Virus record (IMG/VR): IMGVR_UViG_3300036770_004095
Coordinates: 1-31,149 of that record
Source of the DNA: a virus
Reading direction: 5' to 3' (one strand)
Length of the DNA stretch: 31,149 nucleotides
In this document: piece after piece, positions 3,036 through 27,998 of the stretch
How positions within the stretch are numbered: position 1 is the first letter of the stretch
Layout of the letters: every line of letters begins with the position of its first letter
Translations under genes and position numbers: made by a program
The notes under the pieces: generated by a model
Database searches by the model: none
Told to the model about the DNA's origin: nothing
The model's input: the letters and a program-made list of their open reading frames with translations, nothing else

Positions 3036-4090
3036 TGGCGTACTCAGGCACGGTTGGAACGACGACGGTCTCGGTCCAGAAGCTGATCGATCATGGCGCT
3101 CGCCGCGCTGGCAAGCTGGCCGAGGAGTTGACGTCGGAGCAGGTGCAGGCCTCTCGGACGGCGCTGTTCTACCTGCTGTCGAACCTGATCAACATCGGGA
3201 TCCAGTACTGGGCCATCAACAAGGCGGTGATCGGCCTGCGGGCGAACCAGTACATCTACGACCTGCCGCTGGGTGGTGTCGACGTGTTGCAGGCCCTGTA
3301 CCGGCGCATGAACCGGCCGTCGGGCAACGCCTCGACCAGTGCGGGCGGGGTGGTGACGAACGCCTTCGACGGCAACGTGGACACGATCTGCACCCAGGTG
3401 TCGGCCAACGGCAACCTGTCGATGGCGTATTCCGGGCCTGAGTACATCGGGTCGATCGGGATCCTGCCTGGGGCCACTGGGACGTTCGATGTGGTCTTCG
3501 AGACGTCGCAGGACAACGTGTCGTGGACGACCCTGTACGACCCGGGCTCGACGGCCTGGGTGGATGGCAAATGGATCTGGTACGACATCGACCCGGGTGC
3601 GTCGGCGCCGTACTACCGCATGCGCGAGACCGGGGGTGCGACGCTGAGCGTGCGCGAGTTGTACTTCGGGAACAACTCGACCGAGATCACGATGGCCCGG
3701 CTGAACCGGGACGACTACACGAACCTGCCCAACAAGAACTTCACGGCGAACCAGCCGTTCCAGTTCTGGGTGAACCGCACGGTCCCCCAGGCGGAGTTGT
3801 ACCTGTGGCCGGTGCCGTCTGACGACTTCGTGCAGATGACCCTGTGGTATTCGCGGCAGGTGATGGACGTGGGGCAGTTGTCGGGCGAACTGGAGATTCC
3901 GCAGCGCTGGTATCTGGCGGTGCAGAACATGCTGGCGCACCAGATGGCGATGGAGTTGCCTGGGGTTCCGATGGACCGCATCCAGTATCTGGAGGGTCAG
4001 GCGGAGAAGTACCTGATGCTGGCCGAGCAGGAGGAGCGCGACAAGTCGCCCATCATGATCGCGCCGTCGATAGGTGTATATACACGCTGA
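3035..4090 (+). CDS. Connector/tail-tube-type virion protein with inserted discoidin-like domain
   Basis: I use ATG 3035 (351 residues), which overlaps the upstream TGA by one base; GTG codons at 3029 and 3032 are also in frame. Residues 1-94 are helical (SRTALFYLLSNLINIGIQYW) and about 215-351 carry strongly conserved-looking features: RLNRDDYTNLPNK, QFWVNRT, LYLWPVP, a helical stretch and a final YTR. I associate this layout with head-tail connector or tail-tube proteins of aquatic podoviruses. Between them, residues about 95-212 look like an F5/8 type C (discoidin) beta-sandwich: NAFDGNVDT, FETSQDNVSWTTLYD, YYRMRETGG, VRELYFGN. Discoidin domains bind carbohydrates or lipids in known families. 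The exact connector role is inferred. Confidence 0.7.
   Translation: MAYSGTVGTTTVSVQKLIDHGARRAGKLAEELTSEQVQASRTALFYLLSNLINIGIQYWAINKAVIGLRANQYIYDLPLGGVDVLQALYRRMNRPSGNASTSAGGVVTNAFDGNVDTICTQVSANGNLSMAYSGPEYIGSIGILPGATGTFDVVFETSQDNVSWTTLYDPGSTAWVDGKWIWYDIDPGASAPYYRMRETGGATLSVRELYFGNNSTEITMARLNRDDYTNLPNKNFTANQPFQFWVNRTVPQAELYLWPVPSDDFVQMTLWYSRQVMDVGQLSGELEIPQRWYLAVQNMLAHQMAMELPGVPMDRIQYLEGQAEKYLMLAEQEERDKSPIMIAPSIGVYTR
4074..4085. repeat. Perfect 12-bp palindrome GTGTATATACAC at the HNH gene boundary
   Basis: The AT-rich palindrome covers the last codons (Gly-Val-Tyr-Thr) of the connector gene and ends 24 bases before the chosen HNH start. In this GC-rich sequence an AT-rich perfect palindrome stands out. 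It could be an insertion boundary, a homing-enzyme site or simply constrained codons. Confidence 0.6.
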
Positions 4091-4109
4091 TGATTGGAGC
4101 AAGGTTGTA

Positions 4110-4709
4110 ATGAATTTGCTCGCGGGGTTTCACAGGCATCACATCATCCCGAGGTATCAGGGAGGAACGGATGCGCCTGAGAACCTCGTGATGCTGCATC
4201 CAATCGATCACGCGATCGCGCACTTGGTGCGGTTCAAGCTGTACGGGAACCCGGCTGATGGCTGGGCATACAACCGCGTGATCAACGGCCTGAAGGACGA
4301 TTTGATCCCCAATAGGAGGGGCATACCCAAGCCCTACATGAAGAAGCCGAAGTCGGAAGAGACCAAGGCCAAGATGTCGGCGGCGGCCAAAGGCAAGCCA
4401 AAGTCCCGAGAGGCTGTCGAGAAAACGCGTTTGGCTTTGGTTGGCAGGAAGGCCACGCCTCGGCAGCTTGCGGGCTTGGCGCTTGGAAGGTCTCGGCCGG
4501 AAGGATACGTCAGCCCAATGAAGGGCAAGCCGAGGTCGACCCCGTGGATGTTCGGCAAAGAGCCCGCGAACAAGGGTGTGCCGGTCTCTGAAGAGATTCG
4601 GACCAAGCTCTCAGCGGCGGGCAAGGGCCGCAAGCAGACTCCGGAGCAGATCGCAAAACGGGTGGCCTCGCGCCGCGCCACGCTGGCCGCACAAGGAAGG
4701 ACTGTCTGA
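4110..4709 (+). CDS. HNH homing endonuclease with NUMOD3 repeats
   Basis: ATG 4110 (199 residues) is preferred over the in-frame ATG 4074, because AAGG lies 5-8 bases upstream and 4074 would overlap the connector gene. The N-terminus has an HNH core: HRHHIIPRYQGG, then ENLVMLHPIDHAIAH (His10-His11, Asn25, His34/His38). The C-terminal part holds NUMOD3-type DNA-binding repeats: SEETKAKMSAAAKGK (82-96), a degenerate copy at 98-114, and SEEIRTKLSAAGKGRK (160-175) followed by TPEQIAKR. This is a free-standing, site-specific endonuclease of the kind that spreads by inserting next to its target. It separates two virion genes, and its codon use is somewhat less GC-rich than theirs. Confidence 0.9.
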   Translation: MNLLAGFHRHHIIPRYQGGTDAPENLVMLHPIDHAIAHLVRFKLYGNPADGWAYNRVINGLKDDLIPNRRGIPKPYMKKPKSEETKAKMSAAAKGKPKSREAVEKTRLALVGRKATPRQLAGLALGRSRPEGYVSPMKGKPRSTPWMFGKEPANKGVPVSEEIRTKLSAAGKGRKQTPEQIAKRVASRRATLAAQGRTV

Positions 4710-10704: not shown

Positions 10705-11112
10705 ATGGCGATCGTTGCCTCCTACGTTCAGGTGCAGGACATCCTCGGGATACCGGGGGCGACGTGGTACGCCCAGTTCTCTCGGGACTTGGGCGGGAAC
10801 TACGGGTGGACGTTTGCCCAGCCTGGGAACAGCGTCACGGTCCCGTACGTGAGCGTGCAGGACATCGAGGCCACGCCTTCGGACACGTGGTTCGCCGTGT
10901 TTTCCACCGACGCCGGGAACAACCTGGGGTGGAACTTCAACACGGGCGGCATCGTCTCGGTGGAGAACATGCTGATCCAAGACTCCGAGGTGTCGGGTCC
11001 GACGTTGTGGCTGGCCTACGTCTCTGATGGCAACATCAACGGCGGCAACAACGTGGGGTGGCTGTTCAACCCGCCGAATGCCGGTGGGGCACTGGGGATG
11101 TTCTTCCCATGA
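10705..11112 (+). CDS. Triple-repeat virion protein (about 41-residue units)
   Basis: The protein has 135 residues and starts one base after the adhesin stop. It is built of three related units with key positions V/I-Q-D near the start, an aromatic W-[YFL]-A-x-[FV]-S core and a G-W-x-F end: units begin at bases 10723, 10846 and 10966 (123 and 120 bases apart). Examples are TWYAQFSRDLGGNYGWTF and TWFAVFSTDAGNNLGWNF. This could be a three-bladed or trimer-like beta structure. Its position directly after the adhesin suggests a cap, tip or fibre accessory. I do not recognise the family. Its stop overlaps the next ATG. Confidence 0.65.
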   Translation: MAIVASYVQVQDILGIPGATWYAQFSRDLGGNYGWTFAQPGNSVTVPYVSVQDIEATPSDTWFAVFSTDAGNNLGWNFNTGGIVSVENMLIQDSEVSGPTLWLAYVSDGNINGGNNVGWLFNPPNAGGALGMFFP

Positions 11113-11372
11113 TCTACCCGGCGCGTGGCTTGCTGAAGTGGTGGCTGGAGCGCACTCGCTGGGCGGGTGTGGCCGTGCCTCCGTTTGGTGCGTGGATCGA
11201 GCCGGCGCACTTGAACAACGAGCGTCTTGTGAAGCACGAGACGCGGCATCTGGAGCAGGCCCGGGAGATGGGTGTGCTGAAGTGGTACGTGCTCTATGCG
11301 TGGTTCACGCTGCGGCACGGGTATCGTGACAACCCTCTGGAAGTGGACGCCCGAGCGGCGGAAGGAACATGA
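11109..11372 (+). CDS. Miniature HExxH zincin-like protein at the head of the lysis cassette
   Basis: I chose ATG 11109 (87 residues) because it forms an ATGA overlap with the upstream stop; an in-frame ATG at 11058 would lie inside the upstream gene. His43-Glu44-Thr45-Arg46-His47 fits the zinc-metallopeptidase signature HExxH in a helical context (LVKHETRHLEQAREMGV). Downstream, NPLEVDARA offers Glu78 as a third ligand, as in gluzincin-like proteins. The N-terminus has Trp/Leu-rich helices and no clear signal peptide. The next gene, the holin, starts inside its stop codon. It could be an active protease, an inactive zincin fold or a structural metal-binding protein; no substrate is known. 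Confidence 0.6.
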   Translation: MIYPARGLLKWWLERTRWAGVAVPPFGAWIEPAHLNNERLVKHETRHLEQAREMGVLKWYVLYAWFTLRHGYRDNPLEVDARAAEGT

Positions 11373-11572
11373 GCCTGAGCATGCAGCAGAAGTCCGACAT
11401 CGCCGCTGAAGTGGCCAAGGCCACGCCGCCCGTGACGGTGGCTGGTGCGACGGTGGCCGGGGTGCAGGTCAACGACCTGATCCTGTGGGCGACCCTGGTC
11501 TACATCGTCTTGCAGATCGGCTTCTTGCTGTATCGCTGGGGGCGGATGCATTTCGGGAAGGGTGACGAGTGA
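11369..11572 (+). CDS. T7-type (class II-like) holin
   Basis: The protein has 67 residues, the same length as T7 gp17.5 as I recall it. GAAGGA lies directly upstream of ATG 11369. The layout matches the T7 holin: a polar N-terminus, a short VADV-like stretch (AGATVAGVQVNDLIL), one hydrophobic segment at about 36-56 (LILWATLVYIVLQIGFLLY), and a charged tail (RWGRMHFGKGDE). Holins accumulate in the inner membrane and open it at a set time. With a SAR endolysin, a pinholin-like role that releases the anchored enzyme is also possible. It overlaps the genes on both sides by 4 bases. An alternative start at the next Met (11381) is possible. Confidence 0.85.
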   Translation: MSLSMQQKSDIAAEVAKATPPVTVAGATVAGVQVNDLILWATLVYIVLQIGFLLYRWGRMHFGKGDE

Positions 11573-12015
11573 ACCGCAAGGCCGTCGCCGGGCTAGTGCT
11601 GTCTGGCGCGGGGCTAGTGAGCATTGCCTTGCACGAGGGGTTTCGTGACAGGGCGTACGACGACGGTGTGGGCGTGCAGACGATTGGGTTCGGCACGACT
11701 GAGGGTGTCAAGCCTGGGGACCGGATCACTGTCGAGCGGGCGCTGATCCGTCTGGCGGGGGATGTGTCTGCCCACGAGGTGGAGTTGCGGCGCTGCCTGG
11801 GGGATGTGCCCTTGTTCCAACACGAGTGGGATGCCTATGTCTCGTGGGCGTACAACGTGGGCGTGCGGTGCAACTCGACGCTGGTGACCAAGCTGAAGGC
11901 TGGTGACTATGCTGGTGCCTGTGCGGAGCTTTCCCGGTGGGTCTACGCTGGCGGGCGGGTGATGAACGGTCTGGTCAAGCGCCGGGCTGAAGAGCGGGCG
12001 AGGTGCGAGGGATGA
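11569..12015 (+). CDS. SAR endolysin, GH24 lysozyme family
   Basis: The protein has 148 residues and a GTG start that overlaps the holin stop by 4 bases. The catalytic triad of phage lysozymes is present with T4 spacing: Glu23 (HEGFRDRAY), Asp32 and Thr38 (GVQTIGFGTT). The N-terminal 5-21 stretch (AVAGLVLSGAGLVSIAL) is a weakly hydrophobic, Gly/Ala/Ser-rich signal-anchor-release segment right before the catalytic Glu, as in P1- and 21-type endolysins. The C-terminus (MNGLVKRRAEERARC) matches the usual end of the family. It degrades peptidoglycan once released from the inner membrane. Confidence 0.92.
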   Translation: MNRKAVAGLVLSGAGLVSIALHEGFRDRAYDDGVGVQTIGFGTTEGVKPGDRITVERALIRLAGDVSAHEVELRRCLGDVPLFQHEWDAYVSWAYNVGVRCNSTLVTKLKAGDYAGACAELSRWVYAGGRVMNGLVKRRAEERARCEG

Positions 12016-12554
12016 TCGACCGCCTGGGAACGGCCATAGCGGGCGCTGTAGCCGTTTTCTTCGCGGCGGTGACCCTGTACCTCTACCTCGACCGTCAGAA
12101 CGCCCTGAGGTCCGTTTCTGAGGCTCAGCGGGTGCTGGCTGAAGAGCGTGGAGCCTGGACAACGGAGCGGCAGCGGCTGACCGAGGCGGCGCTGATGGAG
12201 TCGGAGCGGGCGCGGCAGGTGGAGTCGCAGTGGCGCGAGAAGCAACGGGAGGTGACGAGCAATGCCCAGGAACAGGTTCGTGCGGCTGCGGCTGATGCTG
12301 CCCGTGCTCGCAGTGCTGCTGACGTCTTGCGTAAGCGTGCCGAAGCCCTCGCCTCCCAATGCACCCCCTATCGTGACGAAGCCAGCCGAGATCCCGCCGC
12401 TGCCTTCGGAGGCGCGGCAGCCAAAAACCCCGGAGTTGTGCTTGCCGACTTGCTCGGACGGCTTGCGCAGACGGCTGGAGAGTTGGCTGCAATAGCGGAT
12501 GCCCGCGGGGCTGCGGGTGCGGCTTGTGAGAAGGCGTACGGGGTGCTGAAATGA
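12012..12554 (+). CDS. Rz: Inner-membrane spanin subunit (Rz-like, DUF2514 type)
   Basis: ATG 12012 (180 residues) overlaps the endolysin stop by 4 bases; a GTG at 12003 in the same frame is less likely. Residues about 7-25 form the single N-terminal membrane anchor (TAIAGAVAVFFAAVTLYLY). A long Arg/Glu/Ala/Gln-rich periplasmic coiled coil follows (about 30-120), as expected for Rz. The C-terminal part (LADLLGRLAQTAGELAAIAD, then GAACEKAYGVL) is the pattern I know from DUF2514 Rz-like proteins. Rz links to the outer-membrane lipoprotein Rz1 across the periplasm and fuses the membranes in the last step of lysis. The Rz1 gene is nested inside this one. Confidence 0.85.
   Translation: MIDRLGTAIAGAVAVFFAAVTLYLYLDRQNALRSVSEAQRVLAEERGAWTTERQRLTEAALMESERARQVESQWREKQREVTSNAQEQVRAAAADAARARSAADVLRKRAEALASQCTPYRDEASRDPAAAFGGAAAKNPGVVLADLLGRLAQTAGELAAIADARGAAGAACEKAYGVLK
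12247..12255 (+). promoter_or_regulatory. Shine-Dalgarno sequence for the embedded Rz1 start
   Basis: GGGAGGTGA lies inside the Rz frame, a few bases before ATG 12262. Such a strong ribosome-binding site within a coding sequence decides the Rz1 start and supports independent translation of the nested gene. Confidence 0.75.
12262..12495 (+). CDS. Rz1: Outer-membrane lipoprotein spanin subunit Rz1, embedded in Rz
   Basis: The protein has 77 residues and is encoded wholly inside the Rz gene in a different frame. It begins with basic residues (MPRNRFVRLR), then a hydrophobic signal segment (LMLPVLAVLLTSC) whose lipobox is Leu20-Thr21-Ser22-Cys23, so the predicted lipid-modified mature protein starts at Cys23. 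The mature part is short and Pro-rich (VPKPSPPNAPPIV), as in known Rz1 proteins, and carries two more cysteines (60 and 64) that might link subunits. Nesting in Rz, length, lipobox and Pro-richness together make the assignment firm. Confidence 0.88.
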   Translation: MPRNRFVRLRLMLPVLAVLLTSCVSVPKPSPPNAPPIVTKPAEIPPLPSEARQPKTPELCLPTCSDGLRRRLESWLQ

Positions 12555-24633: not shown

Positions 24634-26271
24634 ATGGCCAAAGAAACCATCGGTTATCTCCCCGGGCAGGATCCGGGAGATATTGCGGTCACTCGCGAGT
24701 ATCAAGAGGCGTTGCAGACGATGCTCGACTCGCTTGATGCCCGCAAGAACCAGATGTTCGACCCGCAGATGCTGGCGCTGGCCGAGGGTTTCCTCAAGCC
24801 GACGCAGACGGGATCCTTCGGGGAGAGCCTGGGGTATGCGGTGGCCGGTGCGCGGCAGGCGGGCGAGTTGGAGGCCAAGAGGAATCGCGAGCTTGCCGAA
24901 GCCCGTCTGGGGCTGGCTGGGCAGCAGGTCGCGCTCCAGCGCCAGAAGGCCCGTGAGCGGATGTTTGGGCAGGCGATGGGAGAGCCTACAGGCGCTCCAG
25001 GGGCCGCAGGTGAGGGTGAGGGTGCGCCGCCGTCTGCTGCGGGCGCTACGGCCCCTTCTGGTGGCCCTGTGGGGGCGTCTGACGTGGCGGCGGGTGTGGC
25101 GCAGGCTGGTGCCGGTCGTTTGACGGGTGGCATCCAGTTGGTGCCGCCGGACAAGTCCTTCCCGACGTACCGGCAGTTCATGGCTCAGCAGAGGAACGAT
25201 CCGTCGGTCTCGTTCACTGAGGCGAACAAGCGGTGGCAGGACTTGCAGTCCAAGAGGATGGAAGTGCGCGAGGGTGGGGTGTTCGACCGCGCCACGGGCA
25301 TGTTCTACCCGACGCCGAAGGCTGACACGGTCGAGCGGCAGATTGCCGGCCAGACCTACAAGGTGCCGACCACCTGGGCGTTGCAGTACGACAGCGCGGA
25401 TCCGCAGACGCGGCGGATGATGGAGCAGCAGTTCCTGTCTGGCGGTGCGGATGTCGGTGCGGAGCCTGGGGCAGCGCCCAGAACGGTTGGGCCGAGGAGC
25501 GAGAGCCAACGAGCGGTTGAGAAAATCGAGCGGGAGACTCGGGCGCAGGAACGGGCGAAGACGGCAGCGCAGCGCGAGGTTGAAGCGATGCCGCGGCTGG
25601 AGACGGCGATGCGCCTGGATCAGACCTCGCGGCGGCTGATGGGGTACGTCTCTCGAAGCCCCCAGGCCTTCGGCATCTTCCAGAAGCAGGGCGTCCTGCC
25701 GGCAATCGCGACTCTCATCAACGAGGGCATCACCGCAGGCAGTACGCGAATTGCTTTGGGCGGGTTTGAGGACGCCATGCGCAAGGCGGACAAGAACATC
25801 AAGCAAGCCGACCTCGACAACATCTTGCGCGTGGCGGGTGACTTTGCCGAGTTGGAGCTTCAGTTCCGCCGACTGTACCTGTCGGGCCAGGGGCAGGGGT
25901 CGATATCGAACATGGAGGCCGCAATAGTGCCGCGCTTGTCGGGCTCGGTCAGCGATTCGCCTCGGGCCCTGATGACGAAGGCCAAGCTGGTGCAGATGCG
26001 TGCTCAGCATGACATCAAGGTGATCCAGACGTGGCGCGAGATGAAGCGCCAGAATCCTGAGTTGTCCTACCTTGACTTCGAGATGTCCCCGGTCTACGAG
26101 ACCATGCTCAAGCAGTACGACGACGCTCTGCTGAAGGAGTTCGGCGACGAGTCTACGCTGCCTGCTCGCTCTGCTGCGCCTGCTGCTCGACCTGCGCGTC
26201 CGGCCGCACAGGGGGCGCAGCCATACGGAAACGCTCGCAGTCGGGTGCAGGGCATCCTTGGAGGTCAATGA
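24634..26271 (+). CDS. Helical internal virion protein with disordered linker
   Basis: The protein has 545 residues; ATG 24634 has no strong ribosome-binding site. Residues about 55-120 form a helical region (YAVAGARQAGELEAKRNREL, LAGQQVALQRQKARERM). A Gly/Ala/Pro-rich linker follows (about 125-165). The C-terminal half is helical again: TRIALGGFEDAMRKADKNIK, FAELELQFRRLYLSGQGQG and a run including AKLVQMRAQHDIKVIQTWRE. I recognise the general layout from podovirus internal proteins, not a named family. It is followed by a 4-base overlap with the transglycosylase gene. It probably belongs to the ejection apparatus with its neighbours. Confidence 0.6.
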   Translation: MAKETIGYLPGQDPGDIAVTREYQEALQTMLDSLDARKNQMFDPQMLALAEGFLKPTQTGSFGESLGYAVAGARQAGELEAKRNRELAEARLGLAGQQVALQRQKARERMFGQAMGEPTGAPGAAGEGEGAPPSAAGATAPSGGPVGASDVAAGVAQAGAGRLTGGIQLVPPDKSFPTYRQFMAQQRNDPSVSFTEANKRWQDLQSKRMEVREGGVFDRATGMFYPTPKADTVERQIAGQTYKVPTTWALQYDSADPQTRRMMEQQFLSGGADVGAEPGAAPRTVGPRSESQRAVEKIERETRAQERAKTAAQREVEAMPRLETAMRLDQTSRRLMGYVSRSPQAFGIFQKQGVLPAIATLINEGITAGSTRIALGGFEDAMRKADKNIKQADLDNILRVAGDFAELELQFRRLYLSGQGQGSISNMEAAIVPRLSGSVSDSPRALMTKAKLVQMRAQHDIKVIQTWREMKRQNPELSYLDFEMSPVYETMLKQYDDALLKEFGDESTLPARSAAPAARPARPAAQGAQPYGNARSRVQGILGGQ

Positions 26272-27998
26272 TGGCGAACCTGTCGTTCCTGTCGGCGCTG
26301 AATGAAGAGCAGCGGCAGTTCGCTGAGATCATCCGTCGGCGTGCCCGCGAGATGGGCGTGCCGGAAGATCTGGCGGTGGCGGTGGCGTATCAGGAGTCGC
26401 GGCTGAACCCGGCGACCAAGGACAGCCGCAGGGGCGCGGTGGGCATCATGCAGGTGTTGCCGTCCACGGCAAGGGATATGGGCCTGGGTGAGCGCGAGCT
26501 TCGCGATCCGATGCGCAACATCGATGCTGGCCTGATGTACCTGAAGCAGGCACTGCGCGAGACGCAAGACCCTGCCCTGGCGGTCATCTACTACAACGCC
26601 GGCCCGGGCGGGCTGCGGCAGTTCGACCAGGGCGGCGATCTCCCGAAGGAGACGGAGAACTACCTGCTGGCGCTGAAGGGCTACGGTGCGTTCCGCTCTG
26701 AACCGCCGTCTGAACCGCCATCTGAACCGGGTTTGAACCGCCCTGAACCGTCTGAACCGGACCCGTACCAGATACCGGACCTGTCCGCGATCGAGGCGGA
26801 GCAGGAGCGCCGGATGGCGCAGTTGATCGGCGGCGGTGCTGGTGCAGGGCTGGCCGGCGGCCGGATGCTCGGGCGTGGGGCTGGTGCTGGCGTTCAGGCG
26901 CTGGGCCGCTCGTTCGGCCAGGGCATGGCTCAAGGAACAGCGCCCCCTACTGGGGGAGGCATGCCCACCCCTATGGGGGGGCCACAAGGGGGGCCAGCAG
27001 GCCCGCGTCCTTTGCTGGGTGCTCCCACTGCTGCGCCGCCGGGTGGCCCGATGGGTGCGCCTGGAGCCCCGTCGATCCTGACGGCTGCGCCTGCTGGCGG
27101 ACCTGTGGGTGGCCCGGCGGGGCCGGTGGGTGGCCCTGCGGGCACGGCGGCGCAGGCCGTGCGGGTGCGCCAGGGCACGCCTGGGGATGCGGGCACGACC
27201 GGCGTGCAGCGCATGCGGTTCAACGAGCAGACCGCGCAGCAGGCGGCCCGCACGAAGGCGGCCAGCAGCATGTTCGACGAACTGATGCGGCGCGGCGTGG
27301 TGCCGGCGAATGCCTCCCAGGTGCTCGCGGGCATGCCGGACCTGTCGGCCACGCAGAGCGGCATCCTCGTGCCTCAGTCGACGATGATGGAGCCCCAGGC
27401 CCCCCGGCCACCGCAGTCGCCGCTGGAGCGCACTGCACAGGCCCAGGAGGCTCAGAGACGCGCCAGGATGACGCAGACGCTCGCGGGCATGGGCAGGCCT
27501 GGGTCACCCCCTCTGCCGCCCGCTGTGACGCCTCCTGCGCCCGTCCAGGGCACGTTGCCGCCCCCCCCTGCCCCGAAGGTGGGCGCGTTGGAGCAAGTGG
27601 GCCAAGAGTTCCAGCAGATGGCCCGCAGAGGCATTTCCGCGGTTCAGCCGCTGGCGTCGGTGGCCATGAAGTACATCGCCCCCCCGCTGGCCGGCGCGGA
27701 GGCAGGGCGGCAGTTCTCGGGCATGATGCAGGACGTCCAGGCCGAGGAGCCCGACTACGTGCGTGCGGCGCTGCGCGGCCTGGGCGGCACCGCCTCGCTG
27801 GCGTCGATGGTTCCGCCGCTGGCCCCGTTCGCCATACCGATCGCAGCAGGGGCTCCGGTCGTCGAGTCGATGCGCGAGCGCATGCTGGCGCAGCCGGACG
27901 TGCCGGATGAACCGCTCACGCAGGCGGAGATCGAGATGTACTCGCGGCCGTCCTTCAGGATGCCAGCGATGCGATCTTCTGCGCAGCCTCAGCGCTGA
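26268..27998 (+). CDS. Virion lytic transglycosylase (SLT/GH23) ejection protein
   Basis: The protein has 576 residues. ATG 26268 overlaps the upstream stop; ATG 26271 is an equally good alternative. Residues about 16-140 are a lytic transglycosylase domain: catalytic Glu43 in AYQESRLNP, GIMQVLPSTARDMG (59-72), AVIYYNAGPGGL (105-116) and ETENYLLAL. Such domains open the cell-wall layer as phage DNA enters, as in T7 gp16. A Pro-Ser-Glu repeat linker follows (about 144-165), then long Gly/Pro/Ala-rich disorder, and a C-terminal Ala/Pro-rich hydrophobic segment (about 460-540) that could enter the membrane. It ends the plus-strand block; its last 44 bases overlap the minus-strand operon. Confidence 0.85.
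   Translation: MMANLSFLSALNEEQRQFAEIIRRRAREMGVPEDLAVAVAYQESRLNPATKDSRRGAVGIMQVLPSTARDMGLGERELRDPMRNIDAGLMYLKQALRETQDPALAVIYYNAGPGGLRQFDQGGDLPKETENYLLALKGYGAFRSEPPSEPPSEPGLNRPEPSEPDPYQIPDLSAIEAEQERRMAQLIGGGAGAGLAGGRMLGRGAGAGVQALGRSFGQGMAQGTAPPTGGGMPTPMGGPQGGPAGPRPLLGAPTAAPPGGPMGAPGAPSILTAAPAGGPVGGPAGPVGGPAGTAAQAVRVRQGTPGDAGTTGVQRMRFNEQTAQQAARTKAASSMFDELMRRGVVPANASQVLAGMPDLSATQSGILVPQSTMMEPQAPRPPQSPLERTAQAQEAQRRARMTQTLAGMGRPGSPPLPPAVTPPAPVQGTLPPPPAPKVGALEQVGQEFQQMARRGISAVQPLASVAMKYIAPPLAGAEAGRQFSGMMQDVQAEEPDYVRAALRGLGGTASLASMVPPLAPFAIPIAAGAPVVESMRERMLAQPDVPDEPLTQAEIEMYSRPSFRMPAMRSSAQPQR
26697..26760 (+). repeat. Six TGAACCG units encoding a Pro-Ser-Glu linker
   Basis: TGAACCG recurs six times with spacings of 9-12 bases and spells a (P)SEP-type linker between the transglycosylase domain and the rest of the protein. 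Copy number may vary between relatives. Confidence 0.75.

What the first reader, a model, noticed from the sequence alone, without database searches (positions are those of the whole stretch)
11109..11372. An 87-residue HExxH protein leads the lysis cassette
The product has His43-Glu44-x-x-His47 in a helix and a later NPLExDA (Glu78), the ligand set of a gluzincin, in a chain too short for known peptidases of this kind. It is joined to the holin gene by a 4-base overlap, so it is co-translated with lysis proteins. It could be a lysis-linked protease, a regulator of holin or spanin, or a structural zinc protein.
Basis: partly seen in the sequence, partly recalled or inferred. Interest (0 to 1): 0.55.

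Follow-up and report, generated by a model that had tools for sequence, protein, structure and literature searches.

The report
Tiny phage zinc peptidase beside holin
A phage gene directly before the cell-lysis genes encodes an 87-residue protein that very probably folds as a minimal zinc-dependent peptidase and belongs to a widespread, unstudied family; its target is unknown, and it is not tied to lysis in all of its relatives.

Summary
The ORF, the HExxH motif, the later Glu and the 4-base overlap with the holin gene are all real. In 102 distinct homologues, His43, Glu44, His47, Gln50, Tyr72 and Glu78 are invariant; relatives found through a neighbouring gene, with no peptidase pattern, keep the same set in 11 of 11. 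AlphaFold on 45 homologues gives a confident zincin-type model (pLDDT 95.7). The second-look structure rows are almost all gluzincins (VgrG2b, lethal factor, Zmp1, BlaR1, abylysin, selecase), but every Z is below 5. This is therefore most likely a single-domain, catalytically competent gluzincin. Its bacterial relatives reach the Pfam DUF4157/eCIS_core cut-off; the window protein does not. The claim that it is too short for a known peptidase is wrong: its own family and solved mini-gluzincins of about 105 residues are comparable. The lysis link is partial: holin coupling holds in the window and its four closest relatives, but elsewhere the gene sits beside tail, head or unrelated genes. The substrate is unknown. 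It is a new member of a known kind.

The parts
11109..11372 (+). 87-aa single-domain gluzincin-type peptidase; presumed zinc ligands His43, His47, Glu78; general base Glu44; invariant Gln50 and Tyr72
   Evidence: (phrog_37302 E 6.7e-12; phrog_15610 'protease' E 0.0015)
11235..11249 (+). HExxH codons (residues 43-47)
   Evidence: invariant H, E and H
11340..11342 (+). Glu78 codon, presumed third zinc ligand
   Evidence: 102 of 102
11369..11372 (+). ATGA overlap of the peptidase stop with the holin start
   Evidence: same overlap in L001-L004
10705..11112 (+). 135-aa upstream gene, three repeats of a W..F...GNN.GW.F type, no significant family hit; overlaps the peptidase start by ATGA
11369..11572 (+). 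holin (T7 type, class II)
11569..12015 (+). endolysin (phage lysozyme)
12012..12554 (+). Rz-like inner spanin (DUF2514)
   Evidence: searches scanned the GTG form 12003-12554; the ATG form is used here
12262..12495 (+). nested Rz1-like spanin
   Evidence: phrog_11621, E 4.6e-16

Best explanation
The gene encodes a minimal, catalytically competent gluzincin metallopeptidase, made late in infection in the cytoplasm (no signal peptide or membrane helix is evident by eye). Zinc would be held by His43, His47 and Glu78, Glu44 would activate the water, and Tyr72 would be a plausible transition-state stabiliser. The protein is little more than the catalytic core: one sheet edge, a hairpin, the HExxH helix, a spacer helix and the Glu helix. 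It probably cuts one or a few specific proteins, as an accessory late factor exchanged between phages at the tail-lysis boundary. In the window's lineage it is tied by overlapping genes to the holin, so both are probably made at once. Shown: sequence, conservation, overlap, confident model. Inferred: zinc binding, proteolysis, late timing, translational coupling. Unknown: the substrate. Step estimates: zinc site about 0.85; active peptidase about 0.65; phage late or lysis protein as substrate about 0.35; host protein about 0.3.
For: Invariance of H43, E44, H47, Q50, Y72 and E78 in 102 of 102 distinct homologues. The base Glu44 would be free to vary in a purely structural zinc site. The same set is present in 11 of 11 relatives found through a neighbouring small gene, not through peptidase patterns. 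dN/dS about 0.06-0.20. AlphaFold pLDDT 95.7, pTM 0.83 with 45 homologues, against 53.3 and 0.27 from the single sequence. Of 17 second-look rows with Z of 2 or more (87 chains compared), 16 belong to six gluzincins. BFVD best match: an 81-aa phage 'DUF4157 domain-containing protein', TM 0.79/0.84, E 6e-7. phrog_15610 is labelled 'protease'. Bacterial relatives pass the PF13699 cut-off.
Against: No activity is shown, and for the closest solved minimal scaffold (proabylysin) no hydrolysis was detected (passages). Foldseek against the PDB gave nothing at E 0.001 or better (best 1.1, unrelated), and all second-look Z are below 5. No coordinates were available, so the geometry of the three ligands was not measured. 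Neighbours differ between phages, so gene context does not name a substrate.
Confidence: 0.65

Rival explanations
1. Lysis-specific regulator: the peptidase cuts, or binds and restrains, a lysis protein (holin, endolysin or spanin), and so sets lysis timing in phages where it is coupled to the holin.
For: ATGA coupling to the holin in the window and 4 of 4 closest relatives. Phage lysozyme within 1 kb downstream in 7 of 39 homologue contigs. Lysis-type probes hit within 3 kb downstream in 13 of 40 clusters with at least 1.5 kb held.
Against: 6 of those 13 rest only on a probe that I mislabelled M15 (it looks like a holin-type membrane protein). Most clusters show no lysis neighbour with these probes. 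Other copies adjoin tail, head, scaffold or peroxiredoxin genes. Holin and endolysin types differ between copies, so no single lysis substrate is shared. The gene may simply sit in a permissive gap at the tail-lysis boundary.
Confidence: 0.2
2. Virion-carried, ejected host-directed peptidase: the protein is packaged with the tail and enters the new host, in the way DUF4157 proteins are linked to cargo of contractile injection systems.
For: Relation to DUF4157. DUF4157 is associated with injection-system toxins (passages of PMC8213781). The best second-look match is the VgrG2b effector domain, a family often annotated DUF4157. Upstream genes are often tail spikes or fibres.
Against: No packaging evidence. 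The protein stands alone, with no linker, toxin or tail domain. Many copies are not beside tail genes, and chromosomal copies sit by ComEC-like, sortilin-like or acetyltransferase genes.
Confidence: 0.12
3. Non-catalytic zinc protein: the site is kept for folding or binding, and the protein acts as a structural or regulatory partner.
For: Very small with no obvious substrate cleft domain; the minimal scaffold proabylysin showed no hydrolysis (passages).
Against: Glu44, which a structural site does not need, is invariant in 102 of 102, and Tyr72 likewise (11 of 11).
Confidence: 0.2

Closest known systems
PHROG phrog_37302 (unknown function) and phrog_15610 ('protease')
   Same: The window protein matches phrog_37302 over residues 5-83 (E 6.7e-12) and phrog_15610 weakly (E 0.0015); 7 of 8 family members of A1 match each.
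   Different: Neither carries a tested function. The 'protease' label is an annotation only.
DUF4157 / eCIS_core (Pfam PF13699)
   Same: HExxHxxQ at the end of a strand pair; three of the bacterial relatives score 24.7-27.3 bits against a cut-off of 22; the best BFVD neighbour is named DUF4157.
   Different: The window protein has no Pfam hit at E up to 1. Profile comparison aligns mainly the 22-column helix. The NPxExxA Glu helix of this family is not seen within about 60 residues after HExxH in the seven canonical DUF4157 stretches that I read (one has a DPTEVAAA).
VgrG2b C-terminal effector domain (6h56), gluzincin
   Same: Best second-look structure row: Z 4.5, 80 residues, 3.2 A; HExxH plus a later Glu (H935, E936, H939, E983).
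   Different: 179-residue chain with extra helices, fused to a secretion spike.
Mini-gluzincins abylysin (4jiu) and selecase (4qhj)
   Same: Soluble single-domain HExxH gluzincins of about 105-108 residues; Z 2.9 and 2.3.
   Different: Archaeal. Proabylysin has a C-terminal tail that blocks zinc (passages); here the chain ends 9 residues after Glu78. No sequence match in the PDB search.
BlaR1 metalloprotease domain (M56; family recalled)
   Same: HExxH gluzincin core, Z 2.9.
   Different: Membrane-integral receptor protease.
Phage-derived Listeria metzincin Mtz with its partner Tim (PMC8235301)
   Same: A phage-linked metalloprotease that increases sensitivity to phage lysis (abstract only).
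   Different: A secreted metzincin with a lipoprotein partner: another fold class and another gene context.

Membership tests
Gluzincin (clan MA(E)) peptidase | HExxH with both His and the Glu conserved | tested here: met
   102 of 102 distinct homologues; 11 of 11 in a neighbour-based set
Gluzincin (clan MA(E)) peptidase | Downstream Glu as third ligand, on its own helix | tested here: met
   Glu78 in 102 of 102, in helix 76-84 of the model; ligation itself not measured
Gluzincin (clan MA(E)) peptidase | Fold match to solved gluzincins | tested here: inconclusive
   16 of 17 rows with Z of 2 or more are gluzincins, but the best Z is 4.5 and Foldseek has no significant PDB match
Gluzincin (clan MA(E)) peptidase | Zinc-dependent proteolysis | not testable with these tools
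   needs purified protein
DUF4157 / eCIS_core (PF13699) | Score over the Pfam cut-off (window protein) | tested here: not met
   no Pfam family at E up to 1; best of 8 members of A1 E 0.22
DUF4157 / eCIS_core (PF13699) | Score over the Pfam cut-off (relatives) | tested here: met
   family genes in 3 of 12 bacterial genomes over the cut-off (27.3, 26.4 and 24.7 bits); a fourth at 21.1 is under it
DUF4157 / eCIS_core (PF13699) | Profile-profile similarity over the whole domain | tested here: inconclusive
   local probability 73% over 22 columns, global 11% (7 DUF4157 sequences from one genome)
Mini-gluzincin (abylysin/selecase) | Soluble single domain of about 100 residues with HExxH and Glu | tested here: met
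   87 aa, one domain, all secondary elements confident; solubility itself not tested
Mini-gluzincin (abylysin/selecase) | Sequence or clear fold relation | tested here: inconclusive
   Z 2.9 and 2.3; no sequence match
Lysis gene family | Constant association with lysis genes | tested here: not met
   lysozyme within 1 kb in 7 of 39 contigs; other copies in head, tail or other contexts

The most novel reading that the evidence does not exclude
A widespread phage family of near-minimal single-domain gluzincins, with the chain ending about nine residues after the last zinc ligand, acts as a late processing protease; in the window's lineage it is translationally welded to the holin and controls lysis by cutting a holin, spanin or envelope protein. 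That would be a proteolytic step in lysis control of a kind I found no paper on in the listings of searches.
Probability: 0.13. Interest if true: 0.7.

Novelty: new member of a known kind. Interest (0 to 1): 0.36.

Why it matters
If active, these would be among the smallest stand-alone metallopeptidases known, useful for defining the least structure that supports gluzincin catalysis. They would also give a name and a testable function to PHROG families listed as unknown or loosely as protease. A holin-coupled peptidase would add a proteolytic layer to phage lysis, which is now described through holins, endolysins and spanins (recalled). If inactive, they would be a clean case of a fully conserved catalytic set kept for something else.

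Tried and rejected
Pfam and NCBIfam scans gave no family for the window protein. A profile search of PDB sequences gave one chance row. Foldseek on the PDB gave no usable match. Papers: 'minigluzincin' and 'proabylysin' gave the minimal-scaffold literature; 'DUF4157 phage', 'HExxH holin phage', 'gluzincin bacteriophage', 'lysis cassette metallopeptidase phage', 'eCIS_core phage' and a five-term query gave no listed title or abstract on this family; one search was a check on a catalytic Tyr and was not followed up. Of these papers I saw passages (PMC3890501, PMC5557861, PMC8213781, PMC6899460), one outline with abstract (PMC8235301), and search listings only for the rest.

Rejected idea: a recurrent small (about 55 aa) neighbour as dedicated partner or inhibitor. 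It adjoins the peptidase in 25 of 90 distinct viral loci (4 of 45 clusters), but 50 of 61 loci fetched with it show no peptidase within the stretch held (many stretches are short), and it is absent beside the window copy. Rejected idea: prohead protease, because copies occur in phages of different head types and beside non-structural genes; this is inference, not a test. A single-sequence fold gave a poor model, as expected. Phage isolates: tblastn with four family members found the same four records or a subset of them, of 50,697.

Rows dropped: 7 loci that repeat contigs already held, and the window's own locus, before (133 of 141 loci kept, plus the window). 9 of 56 clusters were left out of A4, then 2 more out of A5. 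2 of 105 downstream and 5 of 43 upstream neighbours were left out of A6 and A7. L113 and L116 (both counted among the 45 viral clusters) had doubtful or cut starts. One search kept the best 80 of 127 relatives.

Full report
WHAT IS THERE. The ORF at 11109-11372 (+) encodes 87 residues with HETRH at 43-47 and NPLEVDA at 75-81. Its start and its stop both overlap the neighbouring genes as ATGA. Downstream are a T7-type holin, a phage lysozyme, an Rz-like spanin and a nested Rz1-like gene. Upstream are a 135-aa repeat protein without a significant family hit and a 1110-aa tail protein (phrog_5939, E 1.1e-21). The record is a 31,149-base virus record. The gene is under purifying selection: dN 0.19 against dS 1.06 with L001, and four further pairs give ratios of about 0.06-0.20.

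HOMOLOGUES. One protein found 4 close viral loci. Alignment A3 then found 127 viral relatives (80 kept) and 13 bacterial ones, and two distant phage proteins found 21 and 23 viral loci. With three phage records and the window this gives 134 proteins after removal of repeats, of which 102 are distinct in their core. His43, Glu44, His47, Gln50, Tyr72 and Glu78 are the same in 102 of 102; Ala81 in 101, Pro76 in 100, Tyr63 in 98. A caution: loci were fetched with short patterns, and those contain Tyr72 or Glu78 though not the HExxH; some patterns contain HExxH residues. I therefore used a set free of that bias. A search with a small neighbouring gene returned 61 loci, of which 11 hold the peptidase, 9 of them new. 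All 11 keep HExxHxxQ, and reading the printed sequences, all 11 keep the Tyr and the Glu. Asn75 is often replaced (only 2 of 11 have NPxExxA), so the family signature is better written Y-x-x-x-P-x-E-x-x-A.

FOLD. AlphaFold2 with 45 homologues gives mean pLDDT 95.7 and pTM 0.83: strand 2-4, helix 7-16, hairpin 20-23/27-30, helix 38-54 with HExxH, helix 56-70, and helix 76-84 with Glu78. The sequence alone gives pLDDT 53.3 and pTM 0.27, so the confidence comes from the family. Foldseek against the PDB found nothing significant. In the second look over 87 chains, 17 entries had Z of 2 or more, and 16 of these are gluzincins: VgrG2b 4.5, anthrax lethal factor up to 4.0, Zmp1 3.5, BlaR1 2.9, abylysin 2.9 and selecase 2.3; the one other is a CBS-CP12 protein. 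The gluzincin nature of VgrG2b and abylysin was seen in papers; that of lethal factor, Zmp1, BlaR1 and selecase is recalled. Z below 8 can reflect a common arrangement, so this supports the reading but is not proof. The best viral model match is an 81-aa phage protein named DUF4157 domain-containing (E 6e-7, TM 0.79/0.84).

FAMILY PLACEMENT. The window protein matches phrog_37302 (unknown function) and, weakly, phrog_15610 (protease) and no Pfam or NCBIfam model. In a search of 12 bacterial genomes that hold relatives, the PF13699 model (DUF4157/eCIS_core) lands on the family gene itself above the cut-off in 3 genomes and just below it in a fourth. Profile comparison with seven canonical DUF4157 stretches aligns the HExxHxxQ helix locally (73%) but not the whole domain (11% global). 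I therefore call it DUF4157-like and do not file it as a member. DUF4157 carries HExxH and is linked to injection-system toxins; its role was described as unstudied (passages of PMC8213781).

SURROUNDINGS OF OTHER COPIES. In 4 of 4 closest relatives the peptidase stop overlaps a homologous holin start by ATGA. Across 39 contigs that represent the viral clusters, PF00959 lysozyme occurs in 12, and in 7 it lies 266-947 bases downstream of the peptidase (distances computed by hand from the contig ranges). With a small probe set, 13 of 40 clusters with at least 1.5 kb downstream have a lysis-type homologue within 3 kb; 7 are firm, and 6 rest on a membrane-protein probe that I had mislabelled M15. 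Among 103 downstream neighbours, families seen include Phage_lysozyme 7, GTA_holin_3TM 3, DUF2514 3, GH108 2, Gp77 adaptor 2, Phage_stabilise 2, P22 coat 1 and SU10 adaptor 1, and head closure 3. Among 38 upstream neighbours, tail-spike or tail families match up to 7 each. In the annotated record OQ984149 the copy precedes a peroxyredoxin gene. Bacterial copies lie beside ComEC-like, sortilin-like or acetyltransferase genes (10 neighbour proteins scanned of 44 listed). The lysis link is therefore a property of some lineages, not of the family.

HOW IT PROBABLY WORKS. The invariant set is that of a gluzincin: two His and a Glu for zinc, the HExxH Glu as general base, and an invariant Tyr six residues before the third ligand that could stabilise the transition state (a catalytic Tyr near the third ligand is recalled for the lethal-factor/Zmp1 family and was not checked). 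A structural zinc site would not need Glu44. I put an active peptidase at about 0.65. With no signal peptide or membrane segment evident by eye, it should act in the cytoplasm. Substrate candidates are a late phage protein, a lysis protein or a host protein; nothing here decides among them.

COMPARISON AND NOVELTY. The architecture is known from soluble minimal gluzincins (abylysin: described as the smallest of its subclan when solved, with no activity detected; passages of PMC3890501), and the phage family already exists as PHROGs. What is new here is the demonstration of full active-site conservation across the family, the confident fold, the tie to DUF4157 through bacterial relatives, and the conserved holin overlap in one lineage. 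I rate it a new member of a known kind, of moderate interest.

Noticed in passing
window 10705-11112: 135-aa protein with three repeats of a TW(Y/F)A.FS...GNN.GW.F type, no significant PHROG or Pfam family; it replaces the small gene found at this place in relatives, so the spot after the tail gene looks hypervariable.
   Followed up: partly
L001:3837-3998, L018:4174-4341, L061:4258-4425, L032:4254-4433: A roughly 55-aa late phage protein (motif LSVNDVN...GLGKLP...QAEAQ), without a PHROG match in 3 of 4 tested and only a weak one (E 0.05) in the fourth, adjoins the peptidase directly upstream or downstream in 25 of 90 distinct loci but also occurs widely without it.
   Followed up: partly
window 4074-4709: Homing endonuclease-like gene (phrog_655, E 3.5e-17) upstream of the tail-fibre region.
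   Followed up: no
window 26268-27998: Protein with an N-terminal transglycosylase or lytic tail domain (phrog_2013, E 1.3e-23), a probable second, virion-borne wall-degrading enzyme.
   Followed up: no
L093, L095, L096, L097: Bacterial (Hydrogenophaga, Vogesella) relatives appear to have a hydrophobic N-terminal hairpin before the same HExxH...YRDNPFEVEA core, suggesting membrane-anchored chromosomal versions.
   Followed up: no
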